From a virus: a stretch of 53,286 nt of DNA. The stretch is taken from positions 1 to 53,286 of IMG/VR virus record IMGVR_UViG_3300044800_000094. The stretch is one strand, 5' to 3'. Made by a program: the position numbers and the translations under genes. Positions 1 to 53,286 of this stretch are shown piece after piece. The notes under the pieces are model-generated. The model made no database searches and had not been told where the DNA came from. It saw only the letters and a program-made list of their open reading frames with translations. Position 1 is the first letter of the stretch. Every line of letters starts with the position of its first letter.

Positions 1-151
1 CGGCGACCGGGTGACGCTCGGCGACGGGGTGAAGCTCGGCGACGGGGTGACGCTCGGCGACGGGGTGACGCTCGGCGACTGGGTGACGCTCGGCAACGGG
101 GTGACGCTCGGCGACCGGGTGACGCTCGGCGACGGGGTGACGCTCGGCGAC
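1..151 (+). repeat. 18-bp coding tandem repeat, left portion
   Basis: Eight full copies of the unit gtgacgctcggcgacggg lie head to tail. Synonymous positions are almost invariant and variation is limited to three codons: ACG/AAG, GAC/AAC and GGG/TGG/CGG. This is the same array as the one at the right end of the window. Confidence 0.95.
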
Positions 152-382
152 CAATACGATTGCATCGTCATTGAGGGGTTAGGTTCACGCCGTGCGCCAC
201 TGTCAGCGGTTTTGAATAAAGGTAAAATTCAAATCGGGACAGGATGCTTTCTCGGAACGATTGAAGAATTTGAGGCGGCGGTGAAAAAGAATCACGCCGG
301 AAATGACCACGAAAAACAATATCTGATGGCGCTGGAATATATTCGCAGCCGGTTCAGCGCCAAGCTCAAGGAGGGGAAATAA
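1..382 (+). CDS. Hexapeptide-repeat (left-handed beta-helix) protein, C-terminal part; gene wraps round the window ends
   Basis: This is the end of a gene whose start lies at the right edge of the window (ATG 52984). The first 50 or so codons are perfect hexapeptides L-G-[DN]-[GWR]-V-[TK], which obey the left-handed beta-helix rule [LIV]-[GAED]-x-x-[STAV]-x. A non-repeat domain of about 77 residues follows, containing [27 protein letters not shown] and a charged helical tail ending KLKEGK. I recall similar GSR...TGCF.GT.EEF modules after hexapeptide repeats in other phage and bacterial proteins, but cannot name a function. No catalytic His is visible in the repeat, so a structural or binding role is more likely than acyl transfer. 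A GTG at 11 is only an internal codon. The gene ends just before the promoter of the recombination operon. Confidence 0.8.
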
Positions 383-425: not shown

Positions 426-548
426 ATGAGTGATAAACTGGAATGCCCACGGAAAACCTGCCGCCATCGGTGGAAGCAAAGAGGCGAGCAGCTGCCCAAA
501 TGCTGCCCCAGGTGTAAAAATTACATCACGCCCAAGAAGGTAAAATGA
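426..548 (+). CDS. Small zinc-ribbon-like protein (40 aa)
   Basis: A 40-residue protein with two cysteine pairs spaced CPRKTC near residues 7-12 and CCPRC near 26-30, as in a small zinc ribbon, followed by a basic tail (KKVK). Its ATG lies 10 nt behind a TATAAT box. Its stop overlaps the next start as ATGA, so it opens the operon that runs to 6236. A nucleic-acid or protein binding role is inferred from the zinc-ribbon look only. Confidence 0.6.
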   Translation: MSDKLECPRKTCRHRWKQRGEQLPKCCPRCKNYITPKKVK

Positions 549-904
549 TCGGATTAAAAATGAAAACTAAAATAGACGACCTAACCATCGGCGAGGCGCG
601 TGAACTGGCTACAATGTTCGGCCAGCGCACCGCGTCCGAAAACCATCCTTTCAACATTGGCGCGAATTATTTCATCCGAACGGTGACCCACCATTTGACC
701 GGCAAACTTGCTGGCGTCACATCGCAAGAACTTGTTTTGGAAAACGCCGCGTGGATTGCGGACGACGGGCGTTTAACTGACGCGCTCAAAAGTTGCACAT
801 TCAACGAGGTCGAAATGTTCCCGTCTAGTTCAAAGGTTATTGTCGGGCGCGGCTCGTTGATTGACGCCGTGGAAATTACTTCCACTCCGACTTCTCAGAA
901 GTAA
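545..904 (+). CDS. Conserved phage protein of unknown function (119 aa)
   Basis: The protein carries the motifs YFIRTVTHHLTGK, LVLENAAWIADDGR and KVIVGRGSLIDAVE, which I recognise as a family common in phage genomes without an assigned role. It has no membrane segment or signal peptide and looks like a compact alpha/beta protein. The start used overlaps the previous stop (ATGA); a second in-frame ATG six codons later (MKTKIDD) is possible. Its stop overlaps the start of the Ser/Gly/Arg-repeat gene as TAATG. In related phages, as I recall, this family is also followed by a low-complexity glycine-rich gene. Confidence 0.7.
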   Translation: MIGLKMKTKIDDLTIGEARELATMFGQRTASENHPFNIGANYFIRTVTHHLTGKLAGVTSQELVLENAAWIADDGRLTDALKSCTFNEVEMFPSSSKVIVGRGSLIDAVEITSTPTSQK

Positions 905-1152
905 TGAACGCCGCCATTGCATTCGAGGGCTGGTCGCGGTCGCTGTCGGGGTCGCGGTCGCGGTCGGGGTCGGGGTCGGGGTCGCGGTCGGGGTCGGGAT
1001 CGGGGTCGTGGTCGTGGTCGGGATCGTGGTCGCGGTCGGGGTCGGGGTCGGGGTCGCGGTCGGGGTCGCGGTCGGGGTCGGGGTCGGGGTCGTGGTCGGG
1101 GTCGGGGTCGTGGTCGTGGTCGGGGTCGGGGTCGCGGTCGCGGTCGGGGTAA
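904..1152 (+). CDS. Low-complexity Ser-Gly-Arg repeat protein (82 aa)
   Basis: After a short unique N-terminus (MNAAIAFEGWSRSL) the protein consists of about 70 residues of alternating Ser/Gly/Arg/Trp from a hexanucleotide tract. This frame is chosen because its ATG overlaps the preceding stop (TAATG), it ends 4 nt before the next start, and it fits the operon. The other two forward frames are also open through the tract (Arg-Gly and Val-Gly repeats), so the tract is translatable in all three frames. It is probably disordered. Function is unknown, and the number of copies may be unstable or collapsed in the assembly. Confidence 0.5.
   Translation: MNAAIAFEGWSRSLSGSRSRSGSGSGSRSGSGSGSWSWSGSWSRSGSGSGSRSGSRSGSGSGSWSGSGSWSWSGSGSRSRSG
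932..1149 (+). repeat. GGTCGG-type hexanucleotide microsatellite
   Basis: About 36 copies of a 6-bp unit, ggtcgg with variants ggtcgc and ggtcgt, run without interruption for roughly 220 bp. All three forward frames and the reverse complement stay open. The reverse reading gives a Thr-Pro-rich product that has no support. GGGG at the end of the tract sits 7 nt before the ATPase start at 1157 and may serve as its ribosome-binding site. Confidence 0.9.
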
Positions 1153-1156: not shown

Positions 1157-2203
1157 ATGGAATTTCAAATCAAACCAGCAACCCGGCAGGGAGTGCTCCC
1201 ACTTGTAGGCTTCTATGGTCGCAGTGGAAGCGGTAAAACGATGTCTGCGCTATTGTTTGCGCGAGGCATCGTCGGGCCAAAGGGTCGCATTGTCCTCATT
1301 GATTCCGAGAACCGGCGCGGCAGCATTTTCTCCGACCAGATTCCGGGCGGCTATTCTGTGATTGATATTGAGCCTCCGTTTTCACCAGATCGCTACATCC
1401 AAGCCGTTGAAGCTGCCGAGAAAGCGGCGGATTGCGTTGTCATAGACAGCCAGAGCCATTCATGGAGTGGAGAGGGTGGAGTTCTTGACATGCAGGAGGC
1501 TGAACTTGACCGCATGGCCGGCAACGACTGGGGCAAGCGCGAAAAATGCAAGATGGCCGCTTGGATCAAGCCGAAGCTGGCGCACAAGCAAATGGTGATG
1601 CGGCTGCTCCGTTCAAAGGTCGCCCTGATTATCTGCCTGCGTGGAGAGGAAAAGACTCACATCGTCAAAGAGAACGGGGCAAACAAAGTCATCACAGATG
1701 AGTTTTCCAGCCCACTATTCGACCAAAGGTTCGTGTTTGAACTTTTACTAAATTTGGAAACCATTGCAGTTAATGGGGTTGGAGGCTATGTAATCCCGCG
1801 AAAAATCACTCATCCTGACATTGCGAAGCTGCTTCCGGGTAAAAATCAGCAGATTGGGATCGAACATGGCGAGAATCTGGCGCGCTGGTGCGCGGCGGCA
1901 GGGGCTGCTGCCACGATTGCGCCTCCAATATCCAAAGACTCAGCCACCAAACAAAACGCGCCTGAGACCGTCCTGGGAGCAAATCCGCCGGCCAAATCCG
2001 TCCGCGAGCTTGAAATCGAACTTTGGGGTGTCCTGAAGCCTATCCGAACGCCGTCTAAAAAGGGCTGGGATGAGTGCAATCAGTGGTTATGGGCCGAAGA
2101 AATCCTCGACCCGGCCAAGGAGCCATCGGAGCAGATGCCGGGATTGAGCGCGGAGAAGTTGGTTCAGGTTATCGCCAAATGCCGTCAGAAGATTACAACA
2201 TGA
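1157..2203 (+). CDS. RecA-like / AAA ATPase, Sak4-like recombination protein
   Basis: P-loop ATPase with Walker A GRSGSGKT at residues 21-28, an acidic strand IVLIDSE near residue 50 and a Walker B-like strand CVVIDS with Asp at about 97. The layout (short N-terminus, RecA-type core, variable C-terminal tail) resembles Sak4-type phage single-strand annealing ATPases. The nearby RecE-like nuclease and RusA resolvase support a recombination role. The frame is open further upstream through the GC microsatellite as an Arg-Gly repeat, but ATG 1157 is preferred because GGGG lies 7 nt upstream and the upstream gene ends at 1152. The stop overlaps the next gene as ATGA. It could also be a generic phage nucleotide-binding protein. 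Confidence 0.75.
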   Translation: MEFQIKPATRQGVLPLVGFYGRSGSGKTMSALLFARGIVGPKGRIVLIDSENRRGSIFSDQIPGGYSVIDIEPPFSPDRYIQAVEAAEKAADCVVIDSQSHSWSGEGGVLDMQEAELDRMAGNDWGKREKCKMAAWIKPKLAHKQMVMRLLRSKVALIICLRGEEKTHIVKENGANKVITDEFSSPLFDQRFVFELLLNLETIAVNGVGGYVIPRKITHPDIAKLLPGKNQQIGIEHGENLARWCAAAGAAATIAPPISKDSATKQNAPETVLGANPPAKSVRELEIELWGVLKPIRTPSKKGWDECNQWLWAEEILDPAKEPSEQMPGLSAEKLVQVIAKCRQKITT

Positions 2204-3429: not shown

Positions 3430-3707
3430 AAAATGTTACAAATGGAAGGCTTACCATAACCGCCAATCTCGTTTTAGGCTTTGACTTCACAGAGGCGGAA
3501 ATGGACTCAATTTTGGCGCAACCCGCACAGTCTCAGAGTCGAGCATTCGCTGAAATCCTTGCGACTAAAAATCCCAACTACGAGGATTCGCCATACAATC
3601 TTCAGCAGTTCAAAGAAGGTGCGGCTCGTTGCGTCCTTGAATATCGGGAGCAGTCACTGAAGCAATTGCCGGAAACCAGCACCGCAACGAACGACGTGCC
3701 ATGCTAA
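3426..3707 (+). CDS. Hypothetical protein (93 aa)
   Basis: Starts by ATGA overlap with the previous gene. The N-terminal half contains LVLGFDFTEAEMDSIL and the rest is helical, ending in a polar tail. I do not recognise the family. It lies between the preceding conserved phage gene and the nuclease in the same operon, and its stop is overlapped by the nuclease start by seven bases, so the two are probably made together. Confidence 0.6.
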   Translation: MKNVTNGRLTITANLVLGFDFTEAEMDSILAQPAQSQSRAFAEILATKNPNYEDSPYNLQQFKEGAARCVLEYREQSLKQLPETSTATNDVPC

Positions 3708-4708
3708 CTAACTGCAAAATCGTCGGCGATCACGTCACCTACGCGGAGTACAGCACGCAGGCGGATGGGGTGAAACGCGGTCAGGCTGGCTGGATTATGT
3801 CCCGCTCTGAACTCATGGCGTTCGCTGAGTGTCCGGCTAAATGGGTACTTGAGCCGCCGTCCGATGATGACGACACGAAATCAACCATCTTCGGACGACT
3901 CATTGAAACGCTGGCGATGTGTCCTGAAAACTTCGATGCCCTGTTCGCCGTGTCCCCAAAGACCTACAAGCTGGCCAAAGGCGGCGAGGAAAAGCTTTGG
4001 GATTATCGTTCCACGTCCTGCCAGCAATGGCGCGACCAGATGCACTCCGATGGCTTTACCGTCATATCGTTCGCTGAAAAGATGGAGGCGCTTCTAGCCG
4101 TCGAACAGTTGATGGCCGATCCAAACGTCGTTGACCTCGTTGAGTGCTCGCGCAAGCAAGTGCATGTTACGGGCATGTGGCACGATAAGGAGACAGGGTT
4201 GGATATTCCCATTCAGGCATTGCTCGACCTGGTGCCGGATAAAAAACACGTCATGTTCGGCAGGTGGCTTATAGACCAAAAAACTGCGCGTGAAGGCAAC
4301 CCATCGAAGTTCGTCCGCGCCATCGCTGACAACGGCTACGATATACAGGCTTCACTTCACGCCGATATGTACGTCGCCGCGACCGGCGAAGATCGGACTG
4401 ATTTTGTTTTCCTGCTGTCCGAGAACGAGCCACCTTACCATGTGGTTAAACCAATGCCGGCCATGACGACTGAGTTCATGCAGTTTGGCCGCGATAAGTA
4501 CCAAGGCGCACTCCGATATTACGCGCAGTGTCTCGCAACCAGCAAGTGGCCGTCCTACCAAGTGTTCGGCCTGCACGCCGGCCTGATTCAACTCATCGGC
4601 CCGGAGAGCCTGTGGAGCTACAAGCAGTACGGCGGTCAAGGCTCGTTGCAGGCGAAGATTGAATATGATGCGCCACGGGCGAAAGATGAGGATGAGGTGA
4701 CGCCGTGA
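3701..4708 (+). CDS. RecE-like PD-(D/E)XK exonuclease
   Basis: 335 residues. The N-terminus contains MSRSELMAFAECPAKW, typical of exonuclease VIII/RecE-type nucleases (serine-helix-Cys-Pro-x-x-W), then a helix FGRLIETLAMCPENF. The catalytic core is visible as IQALLDLVPD (Asp) followed by WLIDQKTA, the D-(x)n-D-x-K signature, and then IQASLHADMYVAATG, matching the conserved Q-x-x-x-Y helix. The family degrades duplex DNA 5' to 3' to make single strands for an annealing protein, here probably the Sak4-like ATPase. The usual His of the GRxxH motif appears as Glu, which is unusual. Overlaps the following gene by GTGA. Confidence 0.75.
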   Translation: MLTNCKIVGDHVTYAEYSTQADGVKRGQAGWIMSRSELMAFAECPAKWVLEPPSDDDDTKSTIFGRLIETLAMCPENFDALFAVSPKTYKLAKGGEEKLWDYRSTSCQQWRDQMHSDGFTVISFAEKMEALLAVEQLMADPNVVDLVECSRKQVHVTGMWHDKETGLDIPIQALLDLVPDKKHVMFGRWLIDQKTAREGNPSKFVRAIADNGYDIQASLHADMYVAATGEDRTDFVFLLSENEPPYHVVKPMPAMTTEFMQFGRDKYQGALRYYAQCLATSKWPSYQVFGLHAGLIQLIGPESLWSYKQYGGQGSLQAKIEYDAPRAKDEDEVTP

Positions 4709-16453: not shown

Positions 16454-16461
16454 CTGATTCA

Positions 16462-16662: not shown

Positions 16663-16728
16663 ATTTGGAGTCACTTCATCAAACATCAGTTACATCCGCA
16701 GTCGAACATCTTGGAAATCCCTCACTAT

Positions 16729-16992: not shown

Positions 16993-16993
16993 T

Positions 16994-19376: not shown

Positions 19377-19576
19377 CAGATTTAGAATCCTTTTGTAAAA
19401 AAGTCGAAATCGAGAGATTTGCACTAAACAAAATACTCGCCAAACGAAACGAGCGCGTTGCAATGATTCCTCCAATCGTTATGACCTTATCGCACTACAA
19501 GATACACAAGAAGGTAATTAACCGTGTCTTGGGTGACATCTCAAAACAACTCTGTGACCTTCAAAGGCTAAAATGA
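19373..19576 (+). CDS. Small helical protein (67 aa)
   Basis: Starts by ATGA overlap with the propeller gene. It is wholly helical and basic (FCKKVEIERFALNKILAKRNER, IHKKVINRVLGDISKQL). No family recognised. It lies between two carbohydrate genes. Confidence 0.45.
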   Translation: MTDLESFCKKVEIERFALNKILAKRNERVAMIPPIVMTLSHYKIHKKVINRVLGDISKQLCDLQRLK

Positions 19577-19606
19577 GCGCGTAAGGTGTCCATAGGATTT
19601 ACAGTT

Positions 19607-20374: not shown

Positions 20375-20964
20375 ACATCGTCATCATCGGCAGCGGTGGT
20401 CATGCCGGCGTCGTCATAGACGCCGTACAAAAGCTTGGCGAGTTCCAGATCATCCGCCTGATTGACGATACCTGTGCTGGCAGCATCAAGCATGGGTACA
20501 AGGTCGAGAAGTTCGAGGAAAAATGGTCGCACTTTTTCGCCTTCATCGCCATCGGGGACAACAGAGTGCGCGAGGAACTGTCGAAGCGCGAACTGAATTA
20601 CATCAGCGTCATCCATCCGAGCGCAGAGGCGAGCAAGCAGAATTGCTATGGATCGTACTTCGGAGCCAACTCGGTCGTCGGGCCGAACTCGAAGGTGGGG
20701 AATTTCTCGATCATCAATACGGGCGTCATCCTCGAACACGATTCGACGGTGGGAGATTACACCCATCTTGCGCCCGGAGTCGTCACTGGTGGAAGGGTGA
20801 AGATTGGCAGCCGGACGTTTATTGGACTTGGGTCTCAAATTTGTGACGGTATAACGATTGGAAGCAACGTCACTGTCGGTATGGGTTCAAACGTGCTCAA
20901 AGATGTACCGGACGATTGTGTAGTTTGGGGCAATCCAGCCACAATTCAAAAGGAGGTTTGGTGA
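20371..20964 (+). CDS. NeuD/PglD-like sugar O/N-acetyltransferase (197 aa)
   Basis: N-terminal Rossmann-like domain MNIVIIGSGGHAGVVIDAVQ and a C-terminal left-handed beta-helix made of hexapeptides (VVGPNSKVGNFSIINTGVIL...). The likely catalytic histidine is in LEHDSTVGDYTHLAPG (His 123), and the C-terminus GMGSNVLKDVPDDCVVWGNPA is the standard acetyl-CoA-binding end. Relatives acetylate the amino group or hydroxyl of UDP-linked or sialic sugars, usually just after a DegT aminotransferase, exactly the gene order seen here. Overlaps both neighbours. Confidence 0.8.
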   Translation: MNIVIIGSGGHAGVVIDAVQKLGEFQIIRLIDDTCAGSIKHGYKVEKFEEKWSHFFAFIAIGDNRVREELSKRELNYISVIHPSAEASKQNCYGSYFGANSVVGPNSKVGNFSIINTGVILEHDSTVGDYTHLAPGVVTGGRVKIGSRTFIGLGSQICDGITIGSNVTVGMGSNVLKDVPDDCVVWGNPATIQKEVW

Positions 20965-28100: not shown

Positions 28101-29244
28101 TTGGTTTAAGGTTTGAATTTACAAACCCAATCGCTTTCGCAGCCTGCTCCCGATTCATTGGATCGCCAATAACATTGCCGTTGGCGTCCACGCGCACAAA
28201 TACATGCGCTGCATCCTTCCTGAAGTTGTTGTCAGAATAGGCATCAAAAGCCTTATCTGAAAGCTTTGGAATCAGAGAAGCATGGTCTGTGTGTGTGTCG
28301 TCCCCGACTACAAGCTCGCCGTTGACCAGCAACGCCGGATGCAACTCGTGCGGACTCAATACCCCGGATGCTTGCTGTCGTGGGTCATTGACATGTGACG
28401 GTGCATTCCCTTGTGCTCCCGACTGCTCTGCTTGACGTGTTTCGGCAGCTTGCCCTTGTTGTCGAAGTGGTGGGCTTTGACCCATTGGTGGCCGAACTTC
28501 TGGTTGAGGTAGGCGCGTTGCGCTTGGGATTCCGCTGGTGGCATTTGGTGCTCCTGTGGTTGATGGTTTTGGTTCAAATCTGCTCCCGCCGAGCAACGCA
28601 GCACTGGCTGCGCCACTGGCAATGTCTTGTGCGGTTGGTTTTCTGCCCTGAAGTAACGGCTGTGCCGCTCCAATGCTGCCGCCTAATGCGGCACGAAATG
28701 GAAGCTGTGAAAGTTTTGGAAGCGACAACTCCATGGTTGGAATGTTTCCAGCCACATCTCCAGCAACGGCGGTAAATGGGTGGGCATCGGCTCCGGCAGC
28801 CAGTCGCTTGTCCATTTCGTCGGTGAATTTTGGTGATATTGATTTTAAGGTGGCATGTTGCGCCTTGTAAGCGCCCCATGAAGCGATGCCGCCTGAAACC
28901 AAACCTCCAATAAAAGCACCAGTGGCTCCTAAAACTCCAGCCGCAACATCCGCTGCCGGGTCTTCTGGGCCAAGTCCTAAAATCTCCCCCGTGGCTGCGC
29001 CTATCTTCGCGCCGATCTTTGCTCCTTTTGGGGCAGCTAATGCAAATGCCGCTCCGGGGCCAATTCCTGTGGCGGCATGTTCTCCGAATGTTTCAACTGC
29101 ACCGGGGGATTGTAAGGCAGCCGCCGCAGGCTTGGCCGACTGTGAAGCAATCTGGTCAAGCAGGTCGCCACTAGGCTGAGATGCAGGCAATGCAGCCGGT
29201 GAAGCCTTTGGAGCACCTGCGATTTGGTCTAGGAGATCGGGCAT
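25150..29244 (-). CDS. Large internal virion / polyvalent-type protein (1364 aa)
   Basis: The N-terminus has two copies of DLLDQIA with Ala/Pro linkers, then a Gly/Ala-rich hydrophobic stretch (residues about 65-125, GAAFALAAPKGAKIGAKIGA) that could cross a membrane. The middle, about residues 300-360, resembles domains of large polyvalent phage proteins (LHPALLVNGELVVGDDTHTD). Long charged helices follow, then a C-terminal region with hydrophobic helices and many aromatic residues. I see no lysozyme or transglycosylase motif. Size and position behind smaller internal proteins suggest an ejected protein that forms a channel during DNA entry in short-tailed phages. Confidence 0.6.
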   Translation of the reverse strand: MPDLLDQIAGAPKASPAALPASQPSGDLLDQIASQSAKPAAAALQSPGAVETFGEHAATGIGPGAAFALAAPKGAKIGAKIGAATGEILGLGPEDPAADVAAGVLGATGAFIGGLVSGGIASWGAYKAQHATLKSISPKFTDEMDKRLAAGADAHPFTAVAGDVAGNIPTMELSLPKLSQLPFRAALGGSIGAAQPLLQGRKPTAQDIASGAASAALLGGSRFEPKPSTTGAPNATSGIPSATRLPQPEVRPPMGQSPPLRQQGQAAETRQAEQSGAQGNAPSHVNDPRQQASGVLSPHELHPALLVNGELVVGDDTHTDHASLIPKLSDKAFDAYSDNNFRKDAAHVFVRVDANGNVIGDPMNREQAAKAIGFVNSNLKPREAPYLNSEDLRVRKDATLKPGADKAQVLQDLKKLDPAVLRSRPGLVTLMRKLQAESDSLKNSSGWSGSRKPSPAELQPTDIDKDAANKAFGEKSKTGTLADIKSGKIKDTSGAMGALINHLRSAIDKIAVIKEWADFQKQSDEKTAELTADSENNPSKRAEFLQHGLVAQLPREAIRNIAMFGSREFSPEVVDAAKKALATTKPPEVSSKLVAEPEPQLESSTPLDPQTGNPIPQTAGMGGARLGEVAAKGDASVTGLAARVRAQRETSGHAAPTQPGKGIAPEASVERGQQLLDAGADPEKVMSEFEKTNRASSDDFAVVRAHQDFLARATNGAEEQFGTDSPEFRAANKTEADWSARTKAMQTEWAKSGHAQQGEVDIDTGTFSGLKRAYRDAHDGEEMPKKDEKRAKELADENAKNKKDQADLLKKVGDAIDRETGSKPGGKIPTADETRAALADYKGGKMTTAHVRALWNYAKKNYIDKGNADFRDIVQKVSTDLGIPFKDVAKGLAQPKTVRKLTDALWRKQTDARRVSESAKRWVRQTNSAILGQAVPRLARLMFGAKVFGHGGVAFGTHAPMVAFMPKYSKTYFRDFGKMYKMVFSPAEYEMNVQALRSDPNFATAGRAGLVNDPYKVEDFNNPDMAEILGPNQGKIRKFFGNLAGGGNRGYFALKILRQDMFNQGWNKLPESIKTPEMAKAMADDINHITGVVKSGAGGNKAALALFAPRLLMSRAAFLAGDPYKAIEIASTAASPAKWKALPPEQKFMVLNQVKQKATILATAYGLLKVNQAILSATGSNQKINFTDPTKSDFMKFKVAGMDFSFGNAMLNMARLPVRLWTIGAGDGGKLKHVIYPDESMYSAAGEFARSQASPITSMGLDFVFKGDYENRPLPKIPGYGKPIPMPKRLAAEGIKPYTWPEFFAEQFSPIPLEEGQKDVWRNGFHLTEDGMKTLAKAAGTTIVMMGTGGRLTEDIQPKKKGSP

Positions 29245-29247
29245 TTG

Positions 29248-30093
29248 TCATTGCGCGGGTGGAATTGTGTAACCGTTATCCTGCAACCATTGACGGGCAG
29301 AATCTTTGTCACCGCCTGCGTCATCAAGCGCCTTTTGGATGATGTCCGGCGTGGCAGTCATACCAGAACCTTCTGAGGGCAATCCGGTTCCAGCGTCAGT
29401 CGGCGGTTGCAGCGCGTCGGCAGCGGAGGCGGGCGCGGCTTCGGGTGCAGCTTCAGCCGCCGGGTCGGTCGTGTATTTTTTCAGTCCAGAGATTGCCTCG
29501 TCCACGTTTGTTCCGCCACTTGAATTGGTCAACAACTGCTTAAAAAGCATGTCCTTGATGCCAGGAGTCAGCACGGGCGCAGGCGGTTTCACGACCGGAG
29601 ATTTTGGCACTGTCGGAATCTCCGCATTGGATTTGAACGCCATCGGAAACCGGGACATCAAATCAGCGTTTGAAGTTTCAGGGTGCGCGGCTTTGTATTC
29701 CGCAGCCGCCTGACGTGAGATGTCCTGAAAGTGGGAGTCTTGGGATTTTTGAACCCCTTGTCGGTTCAAAGAATCTATGCGCGCCTTGTCCAAACCGGAC
29801 GCCGCGCTGATGGCGTCAGCTTGGTTCTGAACCCGCTCACTTCCCAACAACCCCGCCTGCTTAATCTGAGCTTCTTTCAATGCCTGAGCGGCGGCGAATT
29901 GCCGTTGCTGTTGGGCATTTTCGTTGGCTGAAGCCGCCAGACGGTCGCGCTCAAGGGCAGCGGTCGCTGACAGTTGATCGGCGTGCTCCTGCGATTGCCG
30001 CAACATCTCCTGCTGCTGTAAACCAAGGCGCGTGCCGGCCTCCGAGGCTCCGAGGAAGTCGGGTGGCGTCAACCATGGGGCTGCGTAGGGCAT
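29248..30093 (-). CDS. Probable internal virion protein with coiled coil (281 aa)
   Basis: Residues 20-130 form a long Gln/Ala-rich helix (LQQQEMLRQSQEHADQLSAT, ENAQQQRQFAAAQALKEA), followed by a Pro-rich linker and a C-terminal UBA-like helical end (IIQKALDDAGGDKDSARQWL). Such Gln/Ala-rich helical proteins are common ejection proteins of podoviruses. It abuts the 1364-aa gene with a 3-nt gap. Confidence 0.55.
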   Translation of the reverse strand: MPYAAPWLTPPDFLGASEAGTRLGLQQQEMLRQSQEHADQLSATAALERDRLAASANENAQQQRQFAAAQALKEAQIKQAGLLGSERVQNQADAISAASGLDKARIDSLNRQGVQKSQDSHFQDISRQAAAEYKAAHPETSNADLMSRFPMAFKSNAEIPTVPKSPVVKPPAPVLTPGIKDMLFKQLLTNSSGGTNVDEAISGLKKYTTDPAAEAAPEAAPASAADALQPPTDAGTGLPSEGSGMTATPDIIQKALDDAGGDKDSARQWLQDNGYTIPPAQ

Positions 30094-30681
30094 TTAGGCA
30101 GATGGGTTTGGTAGATGCACGCTGGCCGGAGCACCAGCCGGGGTGAACCAAGTTGCGTTTTGAGTGCCGCCCGCCGGATTGGAATTTTGGCTCAGATACT
30201 TGTCGAACAACTGTTGCGCGTAAGTCTGAGCCGCTGCTGGATTCGGAGCCGCAGCGTCCACCGCGTTTTGCAGCGCAATATCGCTTTGCAGTTCCGGCTG
30301 TAATTGCTGACTGCCAGCCGTCCCGGTGAACGTGTTGTAATCGGTCAGCCCTTGGTGAGCCAAGCCTTCCGAAGTCAGGCCGAGGCTATTGAGGAAATTT
30401 TGATTCGTAATCGTATTTCCCGGCTGGCCTCCGGGCTGTCCAAGATTGATACCCATTGCCGCCGCCTTGTCTTGCAGCATGTTTGTTGTACCGGGAGACA
30501 GCCTACCGGCAAGCTCGCTTCCAATGTCGCCCGTGGCGGAAGTAGTCAGTGCGCTGTAGTTCGGCACGTTCGATTTCAGTTGGTCGTAGATGCTGGTGGG
30601 CAGGCTGAGTTGTCCCGGCACGGCCCCAAAAGCTCCGGCACCGCCACCTGGCGCAGGATTGAGATTAAATGTTGATGCCAT
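30094..30681 (-). CDS. Internal virion protein candidate (195 aa)
   Basis: Gly/Pro-rich ends flank a helical middle (SIYDQLKSNVPNYSALTTSA, LQSDIALQNAVDAAAPNPAA). It shares its loose, Ala/Gln-rich composition with the neighbour at 29248, and the stop and start of the two genes touch. No motif recognised. Confidence 0.5.
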   Translation of the reverse strand: MASTFNLNPAPGGGAGAFGAVPGQLSLPTSIYDQLKSNVPNYSALTTSATGDIGSELAGRLSPGTTNMLQDKAAAMGINLGQPGGQPGNTITNQNFLNSLGLTSEGLAHQGLTDYNTFTGTAGSQQLQPELQSDIALQNAVDAAAPNPAAAQTYAQQLFDKYLSQNSNPAGGTQNATWFTPAGAPASVHLPNPSA

Positions 30682-30684
30682 AAA

Positions 30685-31095
30685 TCAAGGTGTGTAATCC
30701 GCAGGACTCATGCCGTAAACATTAACGCTGTCCTGATAGGGGTCAGAAGGTGGGGGAGTGGTTGGGACTGTAGGCGTTGGGGCAACCCCTGCACCGCTCG
30801 CTGGTTTTGTGGCGGCTGGCATTCCTGTGCCGCCCCAAAGCCCGTTCCCATTCCAACGCCCACCACTCCAACCTCCACTGGTTGAAGCCGGCGATGCTCC
30901 GCGATTGTTTAGCGCGCCGTAGTTAGGAATCATCTGGCTCAACATTTCCAGAATGGATTGAGGGGTAAGCTCTCCCAAGGTTTTTTGCTGCGGAGTACCA
31001 CCCTGATAAAGCGCGTTACCGCCTATGTTTCCAAAGAAACTTGAACCCGATGGCGGGTAAATTAACGGTTGTCCATTTATTGATCCTGATGGCAT
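30685..31095 (-). CDS. Gly/Pro-rich small virion-region protein (136 aa)
   Basis: Low-complexity protein: Gly/Ser/Trp-rich centre (SGGWSGGRWNGNGLWGGTG), Pro/Thr-rich linker, and a short helical segment (SILEMLSQMIPNYGALNNRG). Its PNYGAL/PNYSAL stretch resembles the next gene's SNVPNYSAL, so the two may be distantly related. Position suggests a tail or internal protein. Confidence 0.45.
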   Translation of the reverse strand: MPSGSINGQPLIYPPSGSSFFGNIGGNALYQGGTPQQKTLGELTPQSILEMLSQMIPNYGALNNRGASPASTSGGWSGGRWNGNGLWGGTGMPAATKPASGAGVAPTPTVPTTPPPSDPYQDSVNVYGMSPADYTP

Positions 31096-31096
31096 A

Positions 31097-32143
31097 TCAC
31101 CAAAGCCGTCTCCTTCCTACTCTCGTGTCTCCAAACGTGTTGTTCTCGAATACGATCTGATCATCCGGGCTTTTGTCAAACGATTCGAGATTGAGTTCAT
31201 GGACTGCGAGCGCCCACTTTTCAGCCGCCGCTTCATCCTCGTTTGCTTCCTCTAAAAGCACCGCCTGAATGCCGAGCTTCAAGGCGCGCAGATTGTCCAC
31301 CGGAATGAAATCACGCTCATTGGTCAGTTCGATGAACTTCAGCTTTATCAGAGCCTCGACCTGTGTCCAGCAACAGCCATTGGCATCCTTGGCACGCTCC
31401 CGATTGTTTAATATCCGGCTGCAACGGTAACGGGGATGGGTTTCACCCGGTCGGAAGGCTGCGATGTCCCTTAACGTCCCGCAAACAGGGTCGTACTCGT
31501 AAAGGTAGCCCATGCCGGACGTGGGTTCGCGCACGATGGATTGAATCTCTGTCACCAGCGCGGTCGTGGAAGAAAACGGATTGGCTGCGGCGATGGTGAG
31601 ACCATTGACCACGCTGCCATTGACGCGCTCCTGCAACGGCTGGCCTCCGTACTGCTTTCCGTAAAGCGTGATGGTCTTTCCAATGTCGTCAGCGTTGGGG
31701 ACGGAGTAACGAACCTGCTTGCCGTTGCCGCCGGAGATGTCGTTGTAGCATGGCCGCGAGTTCGCGTTTTCGACAACCACATCTGACTCGTGGCCGCGAT
31801 GACCATAACCGCCTCCATTGAAACCATCACCCCATCCGTAACCACGCCGGCCATGAGCGGCACGCGGGGCGAACGAATACCAGCCATTTCGGGAGACGGC
31901 GACATCGCCATGACAGAACCGGATGGCCAGCACCGTGCCGACAAATTCAGGCCAAACGAGGTAATGACTGGACAGGCAAAATTGGATGCGCTGCTCAAGA
32001 TCGAACCAGCCGCCGCGAATCATCAGCGAATTCTCAACCTCGTTCACCAGCGCGAGAAATTCAGGTGAGTCAGTACGAACGCCGCAGATTTTCTTTATGG
32101 CGACATTGTTCTGAACGTCCTGAACTTGAATCGTGTAAGGCAT
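31097..32143 (-). CDS. Head-tail adaptor candidate (348 aa)
   Basis: Begins MPYTIQVQDVQNNVAIKKIC and has a Gly/His-rich insertion (residues about 95-118, GYGWGDGFNGGGYGHRGHES) inside a beta-rich body, then a helical C-terminal region (FIPVDNLRALKLGIQAVLLEEANE...AEKWALAVHELNLE). This split (beta domain plus helical bundle near the end) suits tail tubular/adaptor proteins, and it lies between tail and internal proteins. Not confirmed. A start two codons upstream is possible. Confidence 0.5.
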   Translation of the reverse strand: MPYTIQVQDVQNNVAIKKICGVRTDSPEFLALVNEVENSLMIRGGWFDLEQRIQFCLSSHYLVWPEFVGTVLAIRFCHGDVAVSRNGWYSFAPRAAHGRRGYGWGDGFNGGGYGHRGHESDVVVENANSRPCYNDISGGNGKQVRYSVPNADDIGKTITLYGKQYGGQPLQERVNGSVVNGLTIAAANPFSSTTALVTEIQSIVREPTSGMGYLYEYDPVCGTLRDIAAFRPGETHPRYRCSRILNNRERAKDANGCCWTQVEALIKLKFIELTNERDFIPVDNLRALKLGIQAVLLEEANEDEAAAEKWALAVHELNLESFDKSPDDQIVFENNTFGDTRVGRRRLW

Positions 32144-32161
32144 TTCCAATTCCCTTATCGG

Positions 32162-32824
32162 TCAATTCCGGTTCGATTGCAACATCTTCTTCATTGTGGT
32201 AATCGCTGTCTTTGCCTCATCGGGTATTTCCATGACTCCCCTTTTCTCCGTCAGACTGCCCATAATCCTTCGCTTGGGAGTCAGATTTCCGCCGTGAGAA
32301 TTGTAAACATAAAGCTCCGGAGGATTGTCGAGCACGACGCGGTTAAAGAACATGCAGCGGAACCATGCGTCACTGTCGTTTATCCAGTTGGGATAGCGGT
32401 TCTCCGTGTTGCGCGGGAAAAGCATTGTCGAGCCGAAGCCCGATGAGAACTTGTGGACGAGCGCGCATTCACTTTCAAAATCGTGCTGAATCCGGTTTTG
32501 AAGCAGGGACATCCGGCCTTTTGGTGTGCGTTCGGCCTGATACGCCATGTGGTTAGGATGATGCCAATCGTCATCATCCCATATCAGCAACCAATCGCTT
32601 TTTGCGGCGTCGAAAGCCAGATTCCTAAGCGCGCCGACATGCATTGATTCCGTCTTTTTGACTTTGATTTCACGGATGCCTTTTCCCGCGTAAGTTTCAT
32701 TTCCGTGATTAACGATGAGCAGTTCTTTTTCTTTATAGGTTTGATTCAGAAAACATTCTACCGCCATTTTGGGCAGTCCGGCAATGCCTCGCTTCAGCCC
32801 TGTCACCATCACGGCGGTAATCAT
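32162..32824 (-). CDS. GT2-type (GT-A fold) glycosyltransferase (220 aa)
   Basis: MITAVMVTGLKRGIAGLPKM at the start, FLNQTYKEKELLIVNHG (the N-Q-x-Y/x-x-x-E-hydrophobic strand) and DWLLIWDDDDWHHP with an acidic cluster at residues 83-86 define a family 2 glycosyltransferase: the DxD region holds the metal and nucleotide-sugar. It lies inside the tail block, with ATGA overlap to the gene before, so it may decorate tail or fibre proteins. It is separated from the main carbohydrate cassette by more than 10 kb and lies on the other strand. Confidence 0.8.
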   Translation of the reverse strand: MITAVMVTGLKRGIAGLPKMAVECFLNQTYKEKELLIVNHGNETYAGKGIREIKVKKTESMHVGALRNLAFDAAKSDWLLIWDDDDWHHPNHMAYQAERTPKGRMSLLQNRIQHDFESECALVHKFSSGFGSTMLFPRNTENRYPNWINDSDAWFRCMFFNRVVLDNPPELYVYNSHGGNLTPKRRIMGSLTEKRGVMEIPDEAKTAITTMKKMLQSNRN

Positions 32825-33408
32825 GGCGGCGTTCCCCCTGAGCAGTTTGCATTTCCGGTTCTGAAAATCTCGTACAACACTTCCAACGCCTTCGCATTCG
32901 CATCGGCCACACTCAAGGTGCTTTGAATGACGCCGGCAGCCATGACGAGATTGTTTCCACGGTTTGGATTGTCAATCGAGACTCCCGCTGGAAATGCTCC
33001 CGGCGATCTTACGAATCCTGAAATCGTGCAGTTCAACGTCTGTTGCGTGTTGAAAAATACGCCAGTGACGCATCCAAGGTTGATGGCGAATTGCGTCAGG
33101 CATTGGAGCAGCAGTCCGTTGACGAGCGTATCAAGCTGCGGCTGCGTCGTGTTGTCAGGCACGGGAACCGTAATCGTCCCGCTCACACAATTCAGCACCA
33201 AGTCAGGATACGGCGGATTGCCAAGCTCGAAAGTCAGGTTGAAGCCGATGATGCCAGCAGGCAACCCCACGGTCGTTTCCGAGCCAGAGGGGCAGGTGAC
33301 GGTCAAGGTCTGTGCCGCGCTCGTGTAAACCTTGTTCACGGGACTCGATGAAACAAAGTCCTGAAACTGCAAGCACGTCGGACATGGATTTATTTGAGGC
33401 GGTTGCAT
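32821..33408 (-). CDS. Cys-containing tail-region protein (195 aa)
   Basis: NPCPTCLQFQDFVSSSPVNK at the start, then a beta-rich part with regularly spaced cysteines (VTCPSGSETTVGLP, VLNCVSGTITVP, LLLQCLTQFAINLGCVTGVF, TLNCTISGF). The cysteines may form disulphides in the virion. The C-terminus is helical (SVADANAKALEVLYEIFRTG). No family recognised. Start 33408 (MQPPQ) is preferred over an upstream start that overlaps the neighbour. Confidence 0.55.
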   Translation of the reverse strand: MQPPQINPCPTCLQFQDFVSSSPVNKVYTSAAQTLTVTCPSGSETTVGLPAGIIGFNLTFELGNPPYPDLVLNCVSGTITVPVPDNTTQPQLDTLVNGLLLQCLTQFAINLGCVTGVFFNTQQTLNCTISGFVRSPGAFPAGVSIDNPNRGNNLVMAAGVIQSTLSVADANAKALEVLYEIFRTGNANCSGGTPP

Positions 33409-33409
33409 T

Positions 33410-33631
33410 TTATTGTTGAACAATCCGTTGAGCGTTTGTGCTGGTCGTTCTGTATGCGCCCGTGCTGGTGACGCGATCAATGATGACCGGCGGCAATGGG
33501 CCAAGATTGGACGGCGGCAGCATCGCGCTCGACCGCATCGGCTGAACGCAGAAGGCTAGATTCGGTGGGTTCACCACGGGAACATAAGCCGTTGGAACCT
33601 TGATGCAAAATGGACAGTCGTTTAATTGCAT
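33410..33631 (-). CDS. Small tail-region protein (73 aa)
   Basis: DCPFCIKVPTAYVPVVNPPN and a Pro-rich middle, then TGAYRTTSTNAQRIVQQ. The CPxC pair resembles the N-terminus of the next gene (NPCPTC). It overlaps the nozzle gene by 10 nt. Confidence 0.5.
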   Translation of the reverse strand: MQLNDCPFCIKVPTAYVPVVNPPNLAFCVQPMRSSAMLPPSNLGPLPPVIIDRVTSTGAYRTTSTNAQRIVQQ

Positions 33632-35931
33632 ACCACCCTTGCCGGCTCGTTCTCCGGCATCGAGACAGCCTTGAATTTAGCACCTTGAAAGGTCAATGCG
33701 CCGGTTATTTCGATTCTGACTTGGAAAAATCTTCCAACGGAGACAGGTCGTGAGTTCAAGGCTGACGAATCCATTTTTGAGCTTGGCTCGCCAAGTCCAA
33801 ATCGCGTGTCGTAACTCGCCTCTGCGCGCTTGTTGATGACTGTGAACTTGAGCCATGGATACCAACACTGATCAAATTCAGGCCGGAAGTAAACAGCGAT
33901 GGAAGCCTGTCCGACCAGACCGGAAATCGCTATCTCACCATCGGTCAGCCGAACCAGATCGAGTTGATTTTTCCCTTTGACGTTGTTGAAAATCATCGGC
34001 GATTCAAAAGACCAGACAATCGGCTTTGTGACCGGATTTCCACTCACATCGTAGCTCGTGTCATTTATTGGGCCGCTGTCCAACAGGATTTCCCACAATT
34101 CGACCTGATTGGTCGTCGTGTTCAACTGGAAAACGAACGTGCGGTCAACCTTGTTGAACTTTCCGGTGACAATCTGCAACGAGTTCAGCCCCTTCCACAC
34201 GCCATCATAGACACTGGGCAATTTGCCTTGCAGGCTGCTCGACTCGTCAAAGTCCAGGGCGATGATGCCTTGGCTGTAAACTCCGCCCGCGCTGTCAATG
34301 GGCGCGCAGGACAGCAAAGCACGATTGTCCGAGATTCCAAAAGTGATTCGGGAAAGTTCATTGACGTTTTCCTGCTCAATGATCCGGTTTGCTTCCGCGC
34401 TAATAGGCAGGTTGCCCCATTGGTTGAAATCCTGACGAGCGAGCTTCAGAGAGTGAATTGAAGCATCACCGGATTTCAAAATGAGGTCTCCATTGGACAC
34501 GACAGCCGCAGCCTGACCAACCCCGCCGAAGCCGATGATGGAAACGGGCAGGATGGGCGTGCTCAAGTTCGCCCACGTCGTTGCGTCGGTTGGCGCGGAG
34601 CAAGTGAATATCTGGTTGTCGCACAAGATTTGCAGCGGGCCTTGGCCGAGCGAGGCGTCAATCGCGCCCAATGCGATGATGCAGTTGATTTCACCAGCGC
34701 CTCCGGGGATTGAGAATTTGGTCGTGTTCTGGCTCCAGTTTAGAACGGAGTCCCGATAATTGAATTGCTGCGTTCCGCTGGATGAACCGTCCAAATCGCT
34801 CGCAATGAATGATTTTCCATCCGGGGATGAAATCCAGTTTCGGCCTTGAACATAAGCGCCCATGCGACCAATCGGTAATTCACTGGGTATCAGGTTTTCA
34901 CTGATGACAGGATAACCGGCATTGAGGATGATGCCTTGATTCGCAACCGGGTTTCCAAACGGAGCGTTGACATTTGTGACGGTGAGGATGCCTGACCCAC
35001 CGCCAGCAATGGCTGTCACTTTCAGTGTGTATGCCGTTAATGAGCCGGTGCCATCGGTGAGAATGATGTTGTCCCCAACCGCGCCATTAAAAGCGGGTGA
35101 GACAGTGATTTGAAAAGAGGCTCCGATGGCTGGTATTCCAGGTGCCGGAATGGAAACTGAAACCGTCCCGGCATATGCGGGCGAACTTGTACTGATAAGT
35201 GGAGTTCCAACCGGAATCACATCGCCAACGGCTGACAGGCCGGTTGTATTTTGAACGGTTATCACGTTCCCGTTGATTGACTGCACCTGCATCAGGAACG
35301 GAAAAAGGTTCAGCGGTGAAAGCTGGATGTAAGTCCCCACCGCATCCAAAAACGGAGCGTTCAAGGTGATGGGAACTGGCTGACCGATGGCTGGCACGGT
35401 GAAATATCCAACGACAGTTCCAACGAAGCTTGGAGTGACTGAGCGGCGGGAAAATGCGCCGTCAAAGATTATTGGTCGGCTTTGACCGTCCTCGACGATG
35501 ACGTAATTCTCGGTTTGCCAAAGCCATGCCTGAGCGACATTCGCCGGGTTTGGATCAAGAACGGATGGGAGAGTGCTACCGGGAGCCAGCCCGTTTACCG
35601 TCCGGTCAAAGACTCCGGCGTTGCCAATGGTGTCCGGTAAAAACTGGTAGAGCCTTCCTCCGATTTGGGCAATGAGGGATTCTGCACCAATGTCAGGCTT
35701 GTAATATGTTGCGCCCTGAAACCGGGATGCGCCAAACGAAACTCCAGTGTCCGGGATGAGCTTTATCTGGCGATATGCTGGACGGTTGGTGAGGTAAAGT
35801 CCGCGACAGGTGGTGTTAGTGCCGTAAGCAAACTGGTTTTTCTTTAGGGCTATGACCTCGATGCCCGACTCCATCCCACCGTCCATGATGGAAAATTCAT
35901 CCTCAAATTCAATCTGTGGCTTGGCAGGCAC
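33622..35931 (-). CDS. Nozzle-like tail protein, beta-propeller type (769 aa)
   Basis: The protein is beta-rich throughout. The first 180 residues (GLYLTNRPAYRQIKLIPDTG, IAQIGGRLYQFLPD, NYVIVEDGQSRPIIFDG) and the last 350 residues (GGVGQAAAVVSNGDLILKSG, SLKLARQDFNQWGN, VWKGLNSLQIVTGKFNKVDR) look like propeller blades, as in nozzle proteins of short-tailed phages (T7 gp12, P22 gp10). An Ig-like insertion lies at about residues 185-350 (VSVSIPAPGIPAIGASFQIT). Its size and place at the head of the tail block support this. Confidence 0.6.
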   Translation of the reverse strand: MPAKPQIEFEDEFSIMDGGMESGIEVIALKKNQFAYGTNTTCRGLYLTNRPAYRQIKLIPDTGVSFGASRFQGATYYKPDIGAESLIAQIGGRLYQFLPDTIGNAGVFDRTVNGLAPGSTLPSVLDPNPANVAQAWLWQTENYVIVEDGQSRPIIFDGAFSRRSVTPSFVGTVVGYFTVPAIGQPVPITLNAPFLDAVGTYIQLSPLNLFPFLMQVQSINGNVITVQNTTGLSAVGDVIPVGTPLISTSSPAYAGTVSVSIPAPGIPAIGASFQITVSPAFNGAVGDNIILTDGTGSLTAYTLKVTAIAGGGSGILTVTNVNAPFGNPVANQGIILNAGYPVISENLIPSELPIGRMGAYVQGRNWISSPDGKSFIASDLDGSSSGTQQFNYRDSVLNWSQNTTKFSIPGGAGEINCIIALGAIDASLGQGPLQILCDNQIFTCSAPTDATTWANLSTPILPVSIIGFGGVGQAAAVVSNGDLILKSGDASIHSLKLARQDFNQWGNLPISAEANRIIEQENVNELSRITFGISDNRALLSCAPIDSAGGVYSQGIIALDFDESSSLQGKLPSVYDGVWKGLNSLQIVTGKFNKVDRTFVFQLNTTTNQVELWEILLDSGPINDTSYDVSGNPVTKPIVWSFESPMIFNNVKGKNQLDLVRLTDGEIAISGLVGQASIAVYFRPEFDQCWYPWLKFTVINKRAEASYDTRFGLGEPSSKMDSSALNSRPVSVGRFFQVRIEITGALTFQGAKFKAVSMPENEPARVVCN

Positions 35932-35932
35932 A

Positions 35933-37219
35933 TTAACCTAATTGAATGGCAACGATGGATGCTTCAGTGAGGGTTGGCGCGGTGGTGGCGAAAGCGTCAA
36001 TCATGGCCTGCATGTTGATCGAATCGGTGCTGTTCAAAGTCGTGTAAATGACGGGTGGTAGAGTGGCGGAAAAGCCATTGGCGACTCCGCCTGCGGTGGC
36101 AAATGTTGCGATGTTGGTCAACGAATTTGCCACGTCTCCGGGAGAATTATTGGAGCGCGTCAGCTTCAATGACAGGGTGGTTTGAGACGCATCGGTGTCA
36201 TTCAGGAAGTATGCCGTCACGCGGGCCATGAGTAACCATTTGCCGGCAGCGGGCAGCACCAGTTGCGGCGAAAGGGTTCCAAAAACAACTTGGGCGAATC
36301 CGGTCGTCAGGGTGTACGCCGTTCCGCTGGCATAGACGGTCACGTTGCTTCCTATGGGAGCCTGAGTACCGGAAGGTGAAACTGTGGCTCCTGATGGAAT
36401 CGGATTCACGCCGCCAACCGGCAAGTCTCCGATGTAGCCAAGGAACGTGAGAACAACAGATGTGGGGCTGACAATGGTCGTAACATTGAAGTGCGCCGGC
36501 CCTGCGATGACCACGACTTCATATTGCGCCATCCACGCAGTCGAGACGACCGCCGCCGTGTAAGGTGAACCAATCGCCGGGATGGCGGAGATGGGAGCGG
36601 TCAAAGTCGTGTAAGCGTTCTGTCCCGCGCTGCCCGCCGGAGAAACCACTGAACCCAAAGGAAGCGCAGTGCCGGTGCCAACGTCGCTCGCATAGCCCAG
36701 ATAAGTCAGGTATAGCGTGGTGCCGTTTGGAATTGAAACGACCTTGAAATTAGCCGAACCCCCCGTGGCCGCTATGATGACGTTCTCACCCTTCACAAAT
36801 GACGCGCTGCTGACCACGGCATAATTATTGGTGCCTGCCAGCACCGTCTGGCCAGTCCCGGTGATGGTGGTGTAGGCGTTGACGCCAGCCAGTCCGGGAG
36901 CGCCGGTCGGAGAAACTTCCGCGCCTTGAGAAATAACCACGCCGGGAGCAAGGTCGCCGGTCAGTCCAAGGAAGGTTGCCGTGATCTGAGTCGGGCTGTT
37001 GATGGCGGTAATCTGAAAGTTGGCCGGCCCTGCGACAATGATGTTCTGGCCAACGACAAATGGCGCGGTGTTCGTCAGCAGAATGGCGACACTGGAATTA
37101 TATGCAGGGATGGTGAAATTGGCGGTGACGTAGGCGAAGGAACTGTTTCCTGCTACGCCGGGTATTTGAACCACAGGGGGGCAGCAATTGCTCATGTCTT
37201 GGACATTACTCCTTGTCAT
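35933..37219 (-). CDS. Tail protein with three large beta repeats (428 aa)
   Basis: Three or four copies of an 80-85 residue beta module are visible, each ending in YLGYxxD...GxxVSPxG and beginning with AYTT. The matching pieces are FQITAINSPTQITATFLGLT, FKVVSIPNGTTLYLTYLGYA and FNVTTIVSPTSVVLTFLGYI. The C-terminal 150 residues are a different beta domain (LPAAGKWLLMARVTAYFLND). This looks like a fibre or spike shaft with a tip. AAGGAG lies inside the first codons, so the start could instead be ATG 37195 (MSNCCPP). Confidence 0.6.
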   Translation of the reverse strand: MTRSNVQDMSNCCPPVVQIPGVAGNSSFAYVTANFTIPAYNSSVAILLTNTAPFVVGQNIIVAGPANFQITAINSPTQITATFLGLTGDLAPGVVISQGAEVSPTGAPGLAGVNAYTTITGTGQTVLAGTNNYAVVSSASFVKGENVIIAATGGSANFKVVSIPNGTTLYLTYLGYASDVGTGTALPLGSVVSPAGSAGQNAYTTLTAPISAIPAIGSPYTAAVVSTAWMAQYEVVVIAGPAHFNVTTIVSPTSVVLTFLGYIGDLPVGGVNPIPSGATVSPSGTQAPIGSNVTVYASGTAYTLTTGFAQVVFGTLSPQLVLPAAGKWLLMARVTAYFLNDTDASQTTLSLKLTRSNNSPGDVANSLTNIATFATAGGVANGFSATLPPVIYTTLNSTDSINMQAMIDAFATTAPTLTEASIVAIQLG

Positions 37220-52937: not shown

Positions 52938-52987
52938 AAGAAAAAGGAATCTTAATTGAGCGGCAAGCTCAAGGAGGACGTCTATGA
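52934..52987 (+). CDS. Leader peptide before the hexapeptide-repeat gene (17 aa)
   Basis: [17 protein letters not shown]. Its stop overlaps the next start as ATGA, and the ribosome-binding site AAGGAGGA of the repeat gene lies within it. Translation of this short frame would couple to the repeat protein. Confidence 0.5.
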   Translation: MKEKGILIERQAQGGRL

Positions 52988-53286
52988 AAATATATTTATT
53001 TGAAAAAGGCGAATGGAAGTTTTACGAAGGCGTTAAAGCCGATTTGCTTGGCGTGCTCAACGAACACGGGGTGAAGCTCGGCGACGGGGTGACGCTCGGC
53101 AACGGGGTGACGCTCGGCGACGGGGTGAAGCTCGGCGACCGGGTGACGCTCGGCGACGGGGTGACGCTCGGCGACTGGGTGACGCTCGGCAACGGGGTGA
53201 CGCTCGGCGACCGGGTGACGCTCGGCGACGGGGTGAAGCTCGGCGACTGGGTGACGCTCGGCGACGGGGTGACGCTCGGCGACAGG
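52984..53286 (+). CDS. Hexapeptide-repeat protein, N-terminal part (continues at base 1)
   Basis: [20 protein letters not shown] then [13 protein letters not shown] leads into 12 hexapeptides L-G-[DN]-[GWR]-V-[TK] that run off the window. AAGGAGG 8 nt upstream is the best Shine-Dalgarno in the right-hand region. The short N-terminal domain may cap the helix. With the left-hand part the visible protein is about 224 residues with at least 20 repeats; the true copy number may be larger, because an assembler would collapse such an array. Confidence 0.8.
53071..53286 (+). repeat. 18-bp coding tandem repeat, right portion
   Basis: Twelve copies of the same unit as at bases 1-151. A five-unit block with fourth residues G, W, G(N), R, G occurs in both halves, showing a higher-order repeat. 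The final codon is AGG where other units have CGG or GGG. Confidence 0.95.

What the first reader, a model, noticed from the sequence alone, without database searches (positions are those of the whole stretch)
52984..53286. Variable hexapeptide-repeat protein closes the circle of the genome
The right end starts a left-handed beta-helix protein and the left end finishes it. Every unit fits L-G-[DN]-[GWR]-V-[TK], with variation confined to three positions per turn while synonymous sites are frozen. That means recent unit-level expansion and shuffling, with stacked faces of Thr/Lys and Gly/Trp/Arg. Such a pattern could give a repeat-tunable binding surface. The conserved GSR...TGCF C-terminal module makes this a fusion rather than a plain acyltransferase.
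Basis: partly seen in the sequence, partly recalled or inferred. Interest (0 to 1): 0.8.

Follow-up and report, generated by a model that had tools for sequence, protein, structure and literature searches.

The report
Phage beta-solenoid gene with shuffling repeats
The two ends of this phage sequence are almost certainly two halves of one gene for a rod-like repeat protein whose surface residues vary from repeat to repeat, a phage protein family found in phages of many bacteria and of unknown function, but the number of repeats and the circular join cannot be read from this assembly.

Summary
The repeats are real. Both ends carry 18-nt units encoding L-G-[DN]-[GRW]-V-[TK]. Among 18 complete units only nucleotides 7, 10 and 17 vary, and no third codon position varies. 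The right end has the N-terminus. The left end has the C-terminus with a GSR...GTGCF module. Complete relatives carry all three parts in one ORF, so the ends are very probably one gene cut by the assembler. The literal join fails: it is one base out of frame and out of repeat phase, with no exact end overlap. The array length is unknowable. A published technical replicate of a Vibrio phage gives a different array from the same phage, so short reads do not resolve such genes.

What it is: a member of an unnamed phage family, usually sited beside replication or recombination genes, with an N-terminal piece, a homogenised beta-solenoid array and a ~73-residue cap. The cap (4 strands + 2 helices, confident model, no solved relative) also sits on YdcK-type hexapeptide and pentapeptide solenoids. 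Relatives with near-identical flanks differ mainly in the array (Sfi19/SFi18; four Edwardsiella phages). Acyltransferase activity is unlikely. Best mechanism (inferred): an intracellular binding rod whose surface is reshuffled by intra-array recombination.

A second array, 904-1152, is a separate widespread S-[GRW] micro-protein.

The parts
52971..52977 (+). Shine-Dalgarno-like AAGGAGG, 6 nt before the ATG
   Evidence: sequence
52984..53076 (+). N-terminal 31 residues [31 protein letters not shown] before the array
53077..53286 (+). right part of the array: 11 complete 18-nt units plus partial LGDR (last codon AGG), cut by the end of the record
1..142 (+). left part of the array: partial unit (2-16) and 7 complete units (17-142), cut by the start of the record
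143..382 (+). C-terminal cap [40 protein letters not shown]..., stop 380-382; four beta strands and two helices predicted; PHROG 20532/7964 (unknown function)
53141..53236 (+). 96-nt stretch identical to 45-140 at the other end of the record
426..548 (+). next small ORF (40 aa, zinc-ribbon-like cysteine pairs), no family match
   Evidence: sequence; no Pfam hit
545..904 (+). 119-aa protein; homologues lie just upstream of S-[GRW] arrays in many viral contigs
904..1152 (+). second array: leader MNAAIAFEGW + S-[G/R/W] dipeptides (36 TCG codons)
1157..2203 (+). AAA / Sak4-like ATPase (PHROG 1366)
3701..4708 (+). exonuclease VIII-like (DUF3799 / PHROG 412)

Best explanation
The two ends are the 5' and 3' parts of one gene (shown by comparison, not by a joining read). 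Its product is a phage protein, probably made early, with three parts: a short N-terminal piece, a left-handed beta-solenoid built of near-identical hexapeptides, and a conserved ~73-residue cap. Inside each unit Leu and Val face the core; the variable residues (D/N, G/R/W, T/K) face outward (inferred from the hexapeptide fold). The array evolves by recombination between its own units (duplication, loss, conversion), which keeps synonymous sites uniform, while changed outward residues are retained. In relatives the gene usually sits beside replication, recombination or lysogeny genes, not tail genes. The most likely role is therefore an intracellular binding rod whose surface is reshuffled to match or escape a variable host or rival-phage partner, with the cap doing a constant job such as capping, dimerising or docking. 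Shown: architecture, homogenisation, placement, cap fold by prediction. Inferred: binding, partner, selection.
For: One-gene reading: complete relatives have N-terminus + LGxxVx array + cap in one ORF (L006, L008, L009, L010; phiRM10, P26059A, Javan64/246); same strand, same unit codons, 96-nt identity between the ends. Frozen third positions: 0 of 12 minor-base cells in the window; 60 of 445 cells and 17 of 83 variable sites over 15 arrays (binomial 0.007 against one third, 3e-8 against one half, approximate). Codon choice differs between phages but is largely uniform within most arrays. Turnover: Sfi19 and SFi18 have 18 units each with 10 differences in the 401-nt array against 11 in 3006 nt outside. 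Four Edwardsiella phages differ by 4-6 unit edits in 8-10 units, against 1-5 nt in 2.5 kb downstream. phiRM10 has a 203-nt exact repeat 8 units apart. Cap shared across solenoid types: (14 BFVD hits at E<=1e-3, including ydcK-like, polymer-forming cytoskeletal and pentapeptide-repeat phage proteins), L151 pentapeptide array + cap. Placement: exonuclease, ERF, Rad52-type annealing protein, SSB, excisionase, antirepressor or helicase nearby.
Against: No ligand, partner or phenotype is known. The array part of both models is low-confidence. The LGDGVT comparison arrays were found with a DNA pattern that fixes most bases of the unit, so part of their uniformity is ascertainment; the YdcK-type arrays were found by protein, but several arrays (L014, Javan246, P26059A, L147, the Edwardsiella ones) do carry synonymous variation. 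Array order and length from short reads are unreliable. Some relatives lack the GCF cap (Edwardsiella) or carry a different one (Vibrio, L006, E. coli plasmid copy). P26059A lies next to a cell wall hydrolase, not a recombination gene.
Confidence: 0.5

Rival explanations
1. The array is a neutral tandem repeat. Slippage and conversion homogenise it, the fold tolerates any residue at three outward positions, and variation there has no function.
For: Tandem 18-nt repeats are unstable by nature; phiRM10's 203-nt repeat is a plain block duplication; the tolerated residues (G/R/W, D/N, T/K) are one base apart.
Against: Third positions are at least as free to change, yet none vary in the window and they are under-represented over 15 arrays. 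In L006 the three positions are combined almost independently, with 15 amino-acid combinations in 37 units.
Confidence: 0.27
2. A rigid scaffold or polymer (bactofilin-like or YdcK-like spacer) in which length matters, not the identity of surface residues.
For: YdcK-type relatives also hit Pfam Bactofilin and are annotated polymer-forming cytoskeletal; unit number differs between relatives (8 to 37).
Against: Variation of residues is at least as striking as variation of length: Sfi19, SFi18 and CHPC919 all have exactly 18 units but different residues. Bactofilin hits are to the repeat only.
Confidence: 0.12
3. A hexapeptide acyltransferase acting on a sugar or lipid of the host.
For: Best curated-family matches of the array are LpxD/LpxA-like; 'putative acyltransferase' is the usual annotation.
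Against: Scores are 25-40 bits against cut-offs of 207-242. No histidine occurs in any array unit and there are no loops between units. A normal PglD-type acetyltransferase is encoded elsewhere in the window (20371-20964) and looks quite different.
Confidence: 0.05
4. The two ends are parts of two different genes with the same repeats, or the record is chimeric in the repeat.
For: The literal join is out of frame and phase; no exact end overlap; best overlap has 2 mismatches.
Against: One end lacks the C-terminus and the other lacks the N-terminus, exactly as expected of one broken gene; same strand, codons and unit types.
Confidence: 0.1
5. A diversity-generating retroelement edits the array.
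For: Non-synonymous-only variation at chosen positions.
Against: No reverse transcriptase in the record; variation is not adenine-directed (adenines at unit positions 8 and 16 never change in the window); the target is a tandem array.
Confidence: 0.01

Closest known systems
PHROG 20532 and PHROG 7964 (phage proteins of unknown function)
   Same: C-terminal module matches at E 4e-12 and 3e-8
   Different: No function assigned; profiles do not describe the variable array
Streptococcus phage Sfi19 orf229, Ruminococcus phage phiRM10 gp34, Curvibacter phage P26059A ASJ79256
   Same: N-terminal piece + homogenised hexapeptide array + GCF cap in one ORF; replication or lysogeny neighbours for Sfi19 and phiRM10
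   Different: Unit is [YSFC]-G-[DN]-A-[RWQE]-V (YdcK type) instead of L-G-[DN]-[GRW]-V-[TK]; longer N-terminal piece
YdcK (Pfam PF18836 B_solenoid_ydck; PDB 2f9c, 2pig)
   Same: Hexapeptide beta-solenoid; only solved relative found by profile (E 6.5e-05, repeat region only)
   Different: Window protein does not match PF18836; relatives score 61-107 bits against a 350-bit cut-off for the YdcK family
Hexapeptide acyltransferases (LpxD/LpxA)
   Same: Unit periodicity and Pfam Hexapep match
   Different: No catalytic histidine, no loops, scores far under family cut-offs
Pentapeptide-repeat phage protein of IMG/VR contig 3300035698_000963 (L151)
   Same: C-terminal cap 49% identical to the window's
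   Different: Right-handed pentapeptide solenoid instead of hexapeptides
TAL effectors (analogy only, from general knowledge)
   Same: Near-identical repeats with variation confined to a few exposed residues
   Different: Helical repeats that read DNA; no homology and no evidence that this protein reads any polymer

Membership tests
Left-handed beta-helix hexapeptide repeat (Pfam PF00132) | [LIV]-G-x-x-[VA]-x units over the curated cut-off | tested here: met
   67.9 and 58.9 bits against cut-off 27
LpxA/LpxD-type acyltransferase | Score above family cut-off | tested here: not met
   25-40 bits against 207-242
LpxA/LpxD-type acyltransferase | Catalytic histidine in the solenoid and substrate loops | tested here: not met
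   No His in any of 18 complete units; uninterrupted 6-residue spacing. The unseen middle of the array could differ
YdcK family (NF040481 / PF18836) | Curated score | tested here: not met
   Window protein has no PF18836 or NF040481 match; YdcK-type relatives pass PF18836 but not NF040481
Phage GCF-capped beta-solenoid family (PHROG 20532/7964 and relatives) | Cap with invariant G-C-F...E...H...Y after a solenoid array | tested here: met
   Invariant columns in A7; BFVD fold matches
Phage GCF-capped beta-solenoid family | N-terminal piece, array and cap in one reading frame | tested here: inconclusive
   True of complete relatives; in the window the join is not covered by sequence
Diversity-generating retroelement target | Reverse transcriptase, template repeat, adenine-directed variation | tested here: not met
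   No RVT_1; adenines at unit positions 8 and 16 invariant
Bactofilin | Polymer formation | not testable with these tools
   Weak repeat-level match in YdcK-type relatives only

The most novel reading that the evidence does not exclude
A phage-wide recognition system in which a constant cap is mounted on exchangeable beta-solenoid arrays (hexapeptide, YdcK-type, pentapeptide), and exposed residues are reshuffled by the phage's own recombination functions on a frozen coding background, giving a repeat-coded, TAL-effector-like binding surface used inside the infected cell.
Probability: 0.12. Interest if true: 0.85.

Novelty: new variant of a known kind. Interest (0 to 1): 0.5.

Why it matters
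The protein type occurs in phages of Streptococcus, Bacillus, Vibrio, Xanthomonas, Bacteroides and others under misleading names (acyltransferase, glycerol kinase, polymer-forming cytoskeletal protein, even CRISPR spacers). Recognising one capped, array-bearing family, with the array as its fast-changing part, gives a testable candidate for phage-host or phage-phage conflict. It also warns that array lengths in short-read phage genomes are not data: a published technical replicate disagrees with its original exactly here.

Tried and rejected
(1) Circular closure by end overlap: no exact overlap; literal join out of frame. (2) L007 versus L010 as proof of natural length variants (>=27 versus 12 units, with the later of the two shared blocks shifted by 180 nt): kept only as suggestive, because assemblers make just such jumps. 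(3) Vibrio phages 1.034.O/X and 1.139.A/B, whose flanks are 100% identical but arrays differ: rejected as biological evidence because the Nahant paper lists 1.034.X as a technical replicate and notes indels up to 201 bp in parallel-purified sets (PMC6029569); the 1.139 pair differs by 201 bp across this gene. (4) Retroelement: no RT. (5) Profile search with six divergent caps: no usable pattern; genome contigs gave only three loci. (6) Solved fold for the cap: none, best E 0.29. (7) E. coli population test: the E. coli plasmid copy has a degenerate array and no copies in complete genomes. (8) No nucleotide relative of window 1-20000 among isolate phages; no Rfam match. (9) Literature searches for this family found nothing; only open-licence papers were searched.

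Full report
What was checked. The record is a 53,286-base virus record and the window covers all of it. The right end holds an ORF starting at 52984 with a good ribosome-binding site; after 31 residues it runs into 18-nt repeats until the record stops. The left end is open at base 2, continues the same repeats to base 142 and ends in a conserved module with stop at 380-382. TRF finds both arrays and Pfam calls both Hexapep at E 4e-19 and 3e-16. Over the 18 complete units, 15 of 18 nucleotide positions are invariant. The variable ones are position 7 (GAC/AAC), 10 (GGG/CGG/TGG) and 17 (ACG/AAG), and no third codon position varies.

The join. There is no exact overlap of the ends. Joining 53286 to 1 as written adds one base to the frame and breaks the 18-nt phase. 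Overlaps that keep the phase (28, 46, 64, 82 ... nt) all carry mismatches, the best being 82 nt with two. A 96-nt stretch is identical in both ends at different distances from the tips. The positive case is comparative: complete relatives have N-terminal piece, array and cap in one ORF, and here one end lacks exactly what the other has.

How far the array can be trusted. In the Nahant collection two Vibrio phages carry a related gene. 1.034.O and 1.034.X are identical over 2,940 nt before and 2,700 nt after it but differ in the array; 1.139.A and 1.139.B likewise, and 1.139.B has stop codons in it. The data paper lists 1.034.X as a technical replicate and reports indels up to 201 bp between parallel-purified sets (PMC6029569); the 1.139 regions differ by 201 bp. 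Short-read assemblies thus do not resolve these arrays. Unit types are safe, since a unit is far shorter than a read; unit order and number in the window are not. The same caution applies to L007 and L010, which are near-identical contigs with >=27 and 12 units.

Turnover in relatives. Sfi19 and SFi18 (AF115102, AF158601; records of the Sanger era by accession, my inference) both have 18 units, yet 10 of their 21 differences over 3.4 kb fall in the 401-nt array. Four Edwardsiella phages from different laboratories have 8-10 units, short enough to be assembled. They differ by 4-6 unit edits while 2.5 kb downstream differs by 1-5 nt. phiRM10 has a 203-nt exact repeat eight units apart. Copying between units of one array explains these.

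Frozen synonymous sites. In fifteen arrays from different phages, third positions hold 60 of 445 minor-base cells and 17 of 83 variable sites (binomial tests, approximate because sites within an array are not independent). Codon choice differs between phages (GGT or GGC, GTC, GTA or GTT) but is largely uniform within most arrays. Several arrays do have synonymous variation, and the LGDGVT set was found with a DNA pattern, so the effect is real but not absolute. In L006, 37 units show 15 combinations of the three variable residues, close to independent.

The family. The cap matches PHROG 20532 and 7964, both of unknown function. Invariant features over ten sequences are G-C-F, E, H and Y. AlphaFold2 gives four strands and two helices at pLDDT mostly 84-95 for the cap, while the array in the same model is below 50. 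No solved structure matches. Among predicted viral proteins the cap is found on ydcK-like, polymer-forming and pentapeptide-repeat proteins; L151 is a pentapeptide protein whose cap is 49% identical to the window's. The LGDGVT subfamily in IMG/VR carries caps that share the I-x-x-G-C core but are otherwise diverse. So a cap with a constant core is mounted on different solenoids.

Where it sits. Window: next to a 119-aa protein, the S-[GRW] array protein, an AAA/Sak4-like ATPase and an exonuclease VIII-like protein. L007: downstream of ERF and YqaJ genes. phiRM10: before Gam-like and Rad52-type genes. Javan246: between excisionase and replication genes. Javan64: near SSB. Sfi19: upstream of the helicase. 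P26059A is less clear, next to a cell wall hydrolase. The usual position is not that of a tail or receptor-binding gene.

Function. Acyltransferase activity is unlikely: scores are far under cut-offs, there is no histidine in the units and no loops. The most likely role, inferred only, is an intracellular binding rod with a surface reshuffled by recombination and retained by selection. The neutral-repeat rival cannot be excluded.

A second array. The window's 904-1152 ORF is a separate finding: S-[G/R/W] dipeptides encoded TCG-[GCT]GG behind a leader. Many have a short leader in the same frame (MNAAILRAGFD, MNAAIAFEGW, KQKYR, LGNxNT). Of 82 loci with enough sequence upstream, 51 carry a homologue of the 545-904 protein on the array's strand, in most measured cases within 150 nt upstream. 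That upstream protein is nearly absent from isolate phages (1 of 50,697 records).

Verdict. A real, unnamed but widespread phage protein type; the window member is new in its unit sequence; circularity and unit number are not established.

Noticed in passing
window 904-1152 (+), with 545-904 (+); L015-L134: Micro-protein of a short leader plus 10-45 S-[G/R/W] dipeptides encoded TCG-[GCT]GG, in at least 120 IMG/VR stretches, often directly downstream of a homologue of the 119-aa protein 545-904 (51 of 82 loci with upstream sequence); that homologue is nearly absent from isolate phages. The search pattern fixed TCG and excluded AGG, so codon counts are biased.
   Followed up: partly
L156-L160 (Vibrio phages 1.034.O/X, 1.139.A/B, 1.209.O): The solenoid array is annotated as CRISPR spacers in the deposited records; replicate assemblies of one phage disagree in it, 1.139.B has in-frame stops and 1.209.O a frameshift in it.
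   Followed up: yes
window 18375-20964 (+): Possible sugar-modification genes: GH130-like (weak), aminotransferase-like (weak) and PglD-type acetyltransferase, i.e. a conventional hexapeptide enzyme in the same phage.
   Followed up: no
window 25150-37219 (-): The five large minus-strand ORFs tested in this stretch (one of 1,364 aa) have no PHROG match, so the structural genes of this phage are unrecognised.
   Followed up: no
L155 3896-4120 (Richelia MAG): GCF cap after only a remnant of a pentapeptide repeat in a cyanobacterial genome.
   Followed up: no
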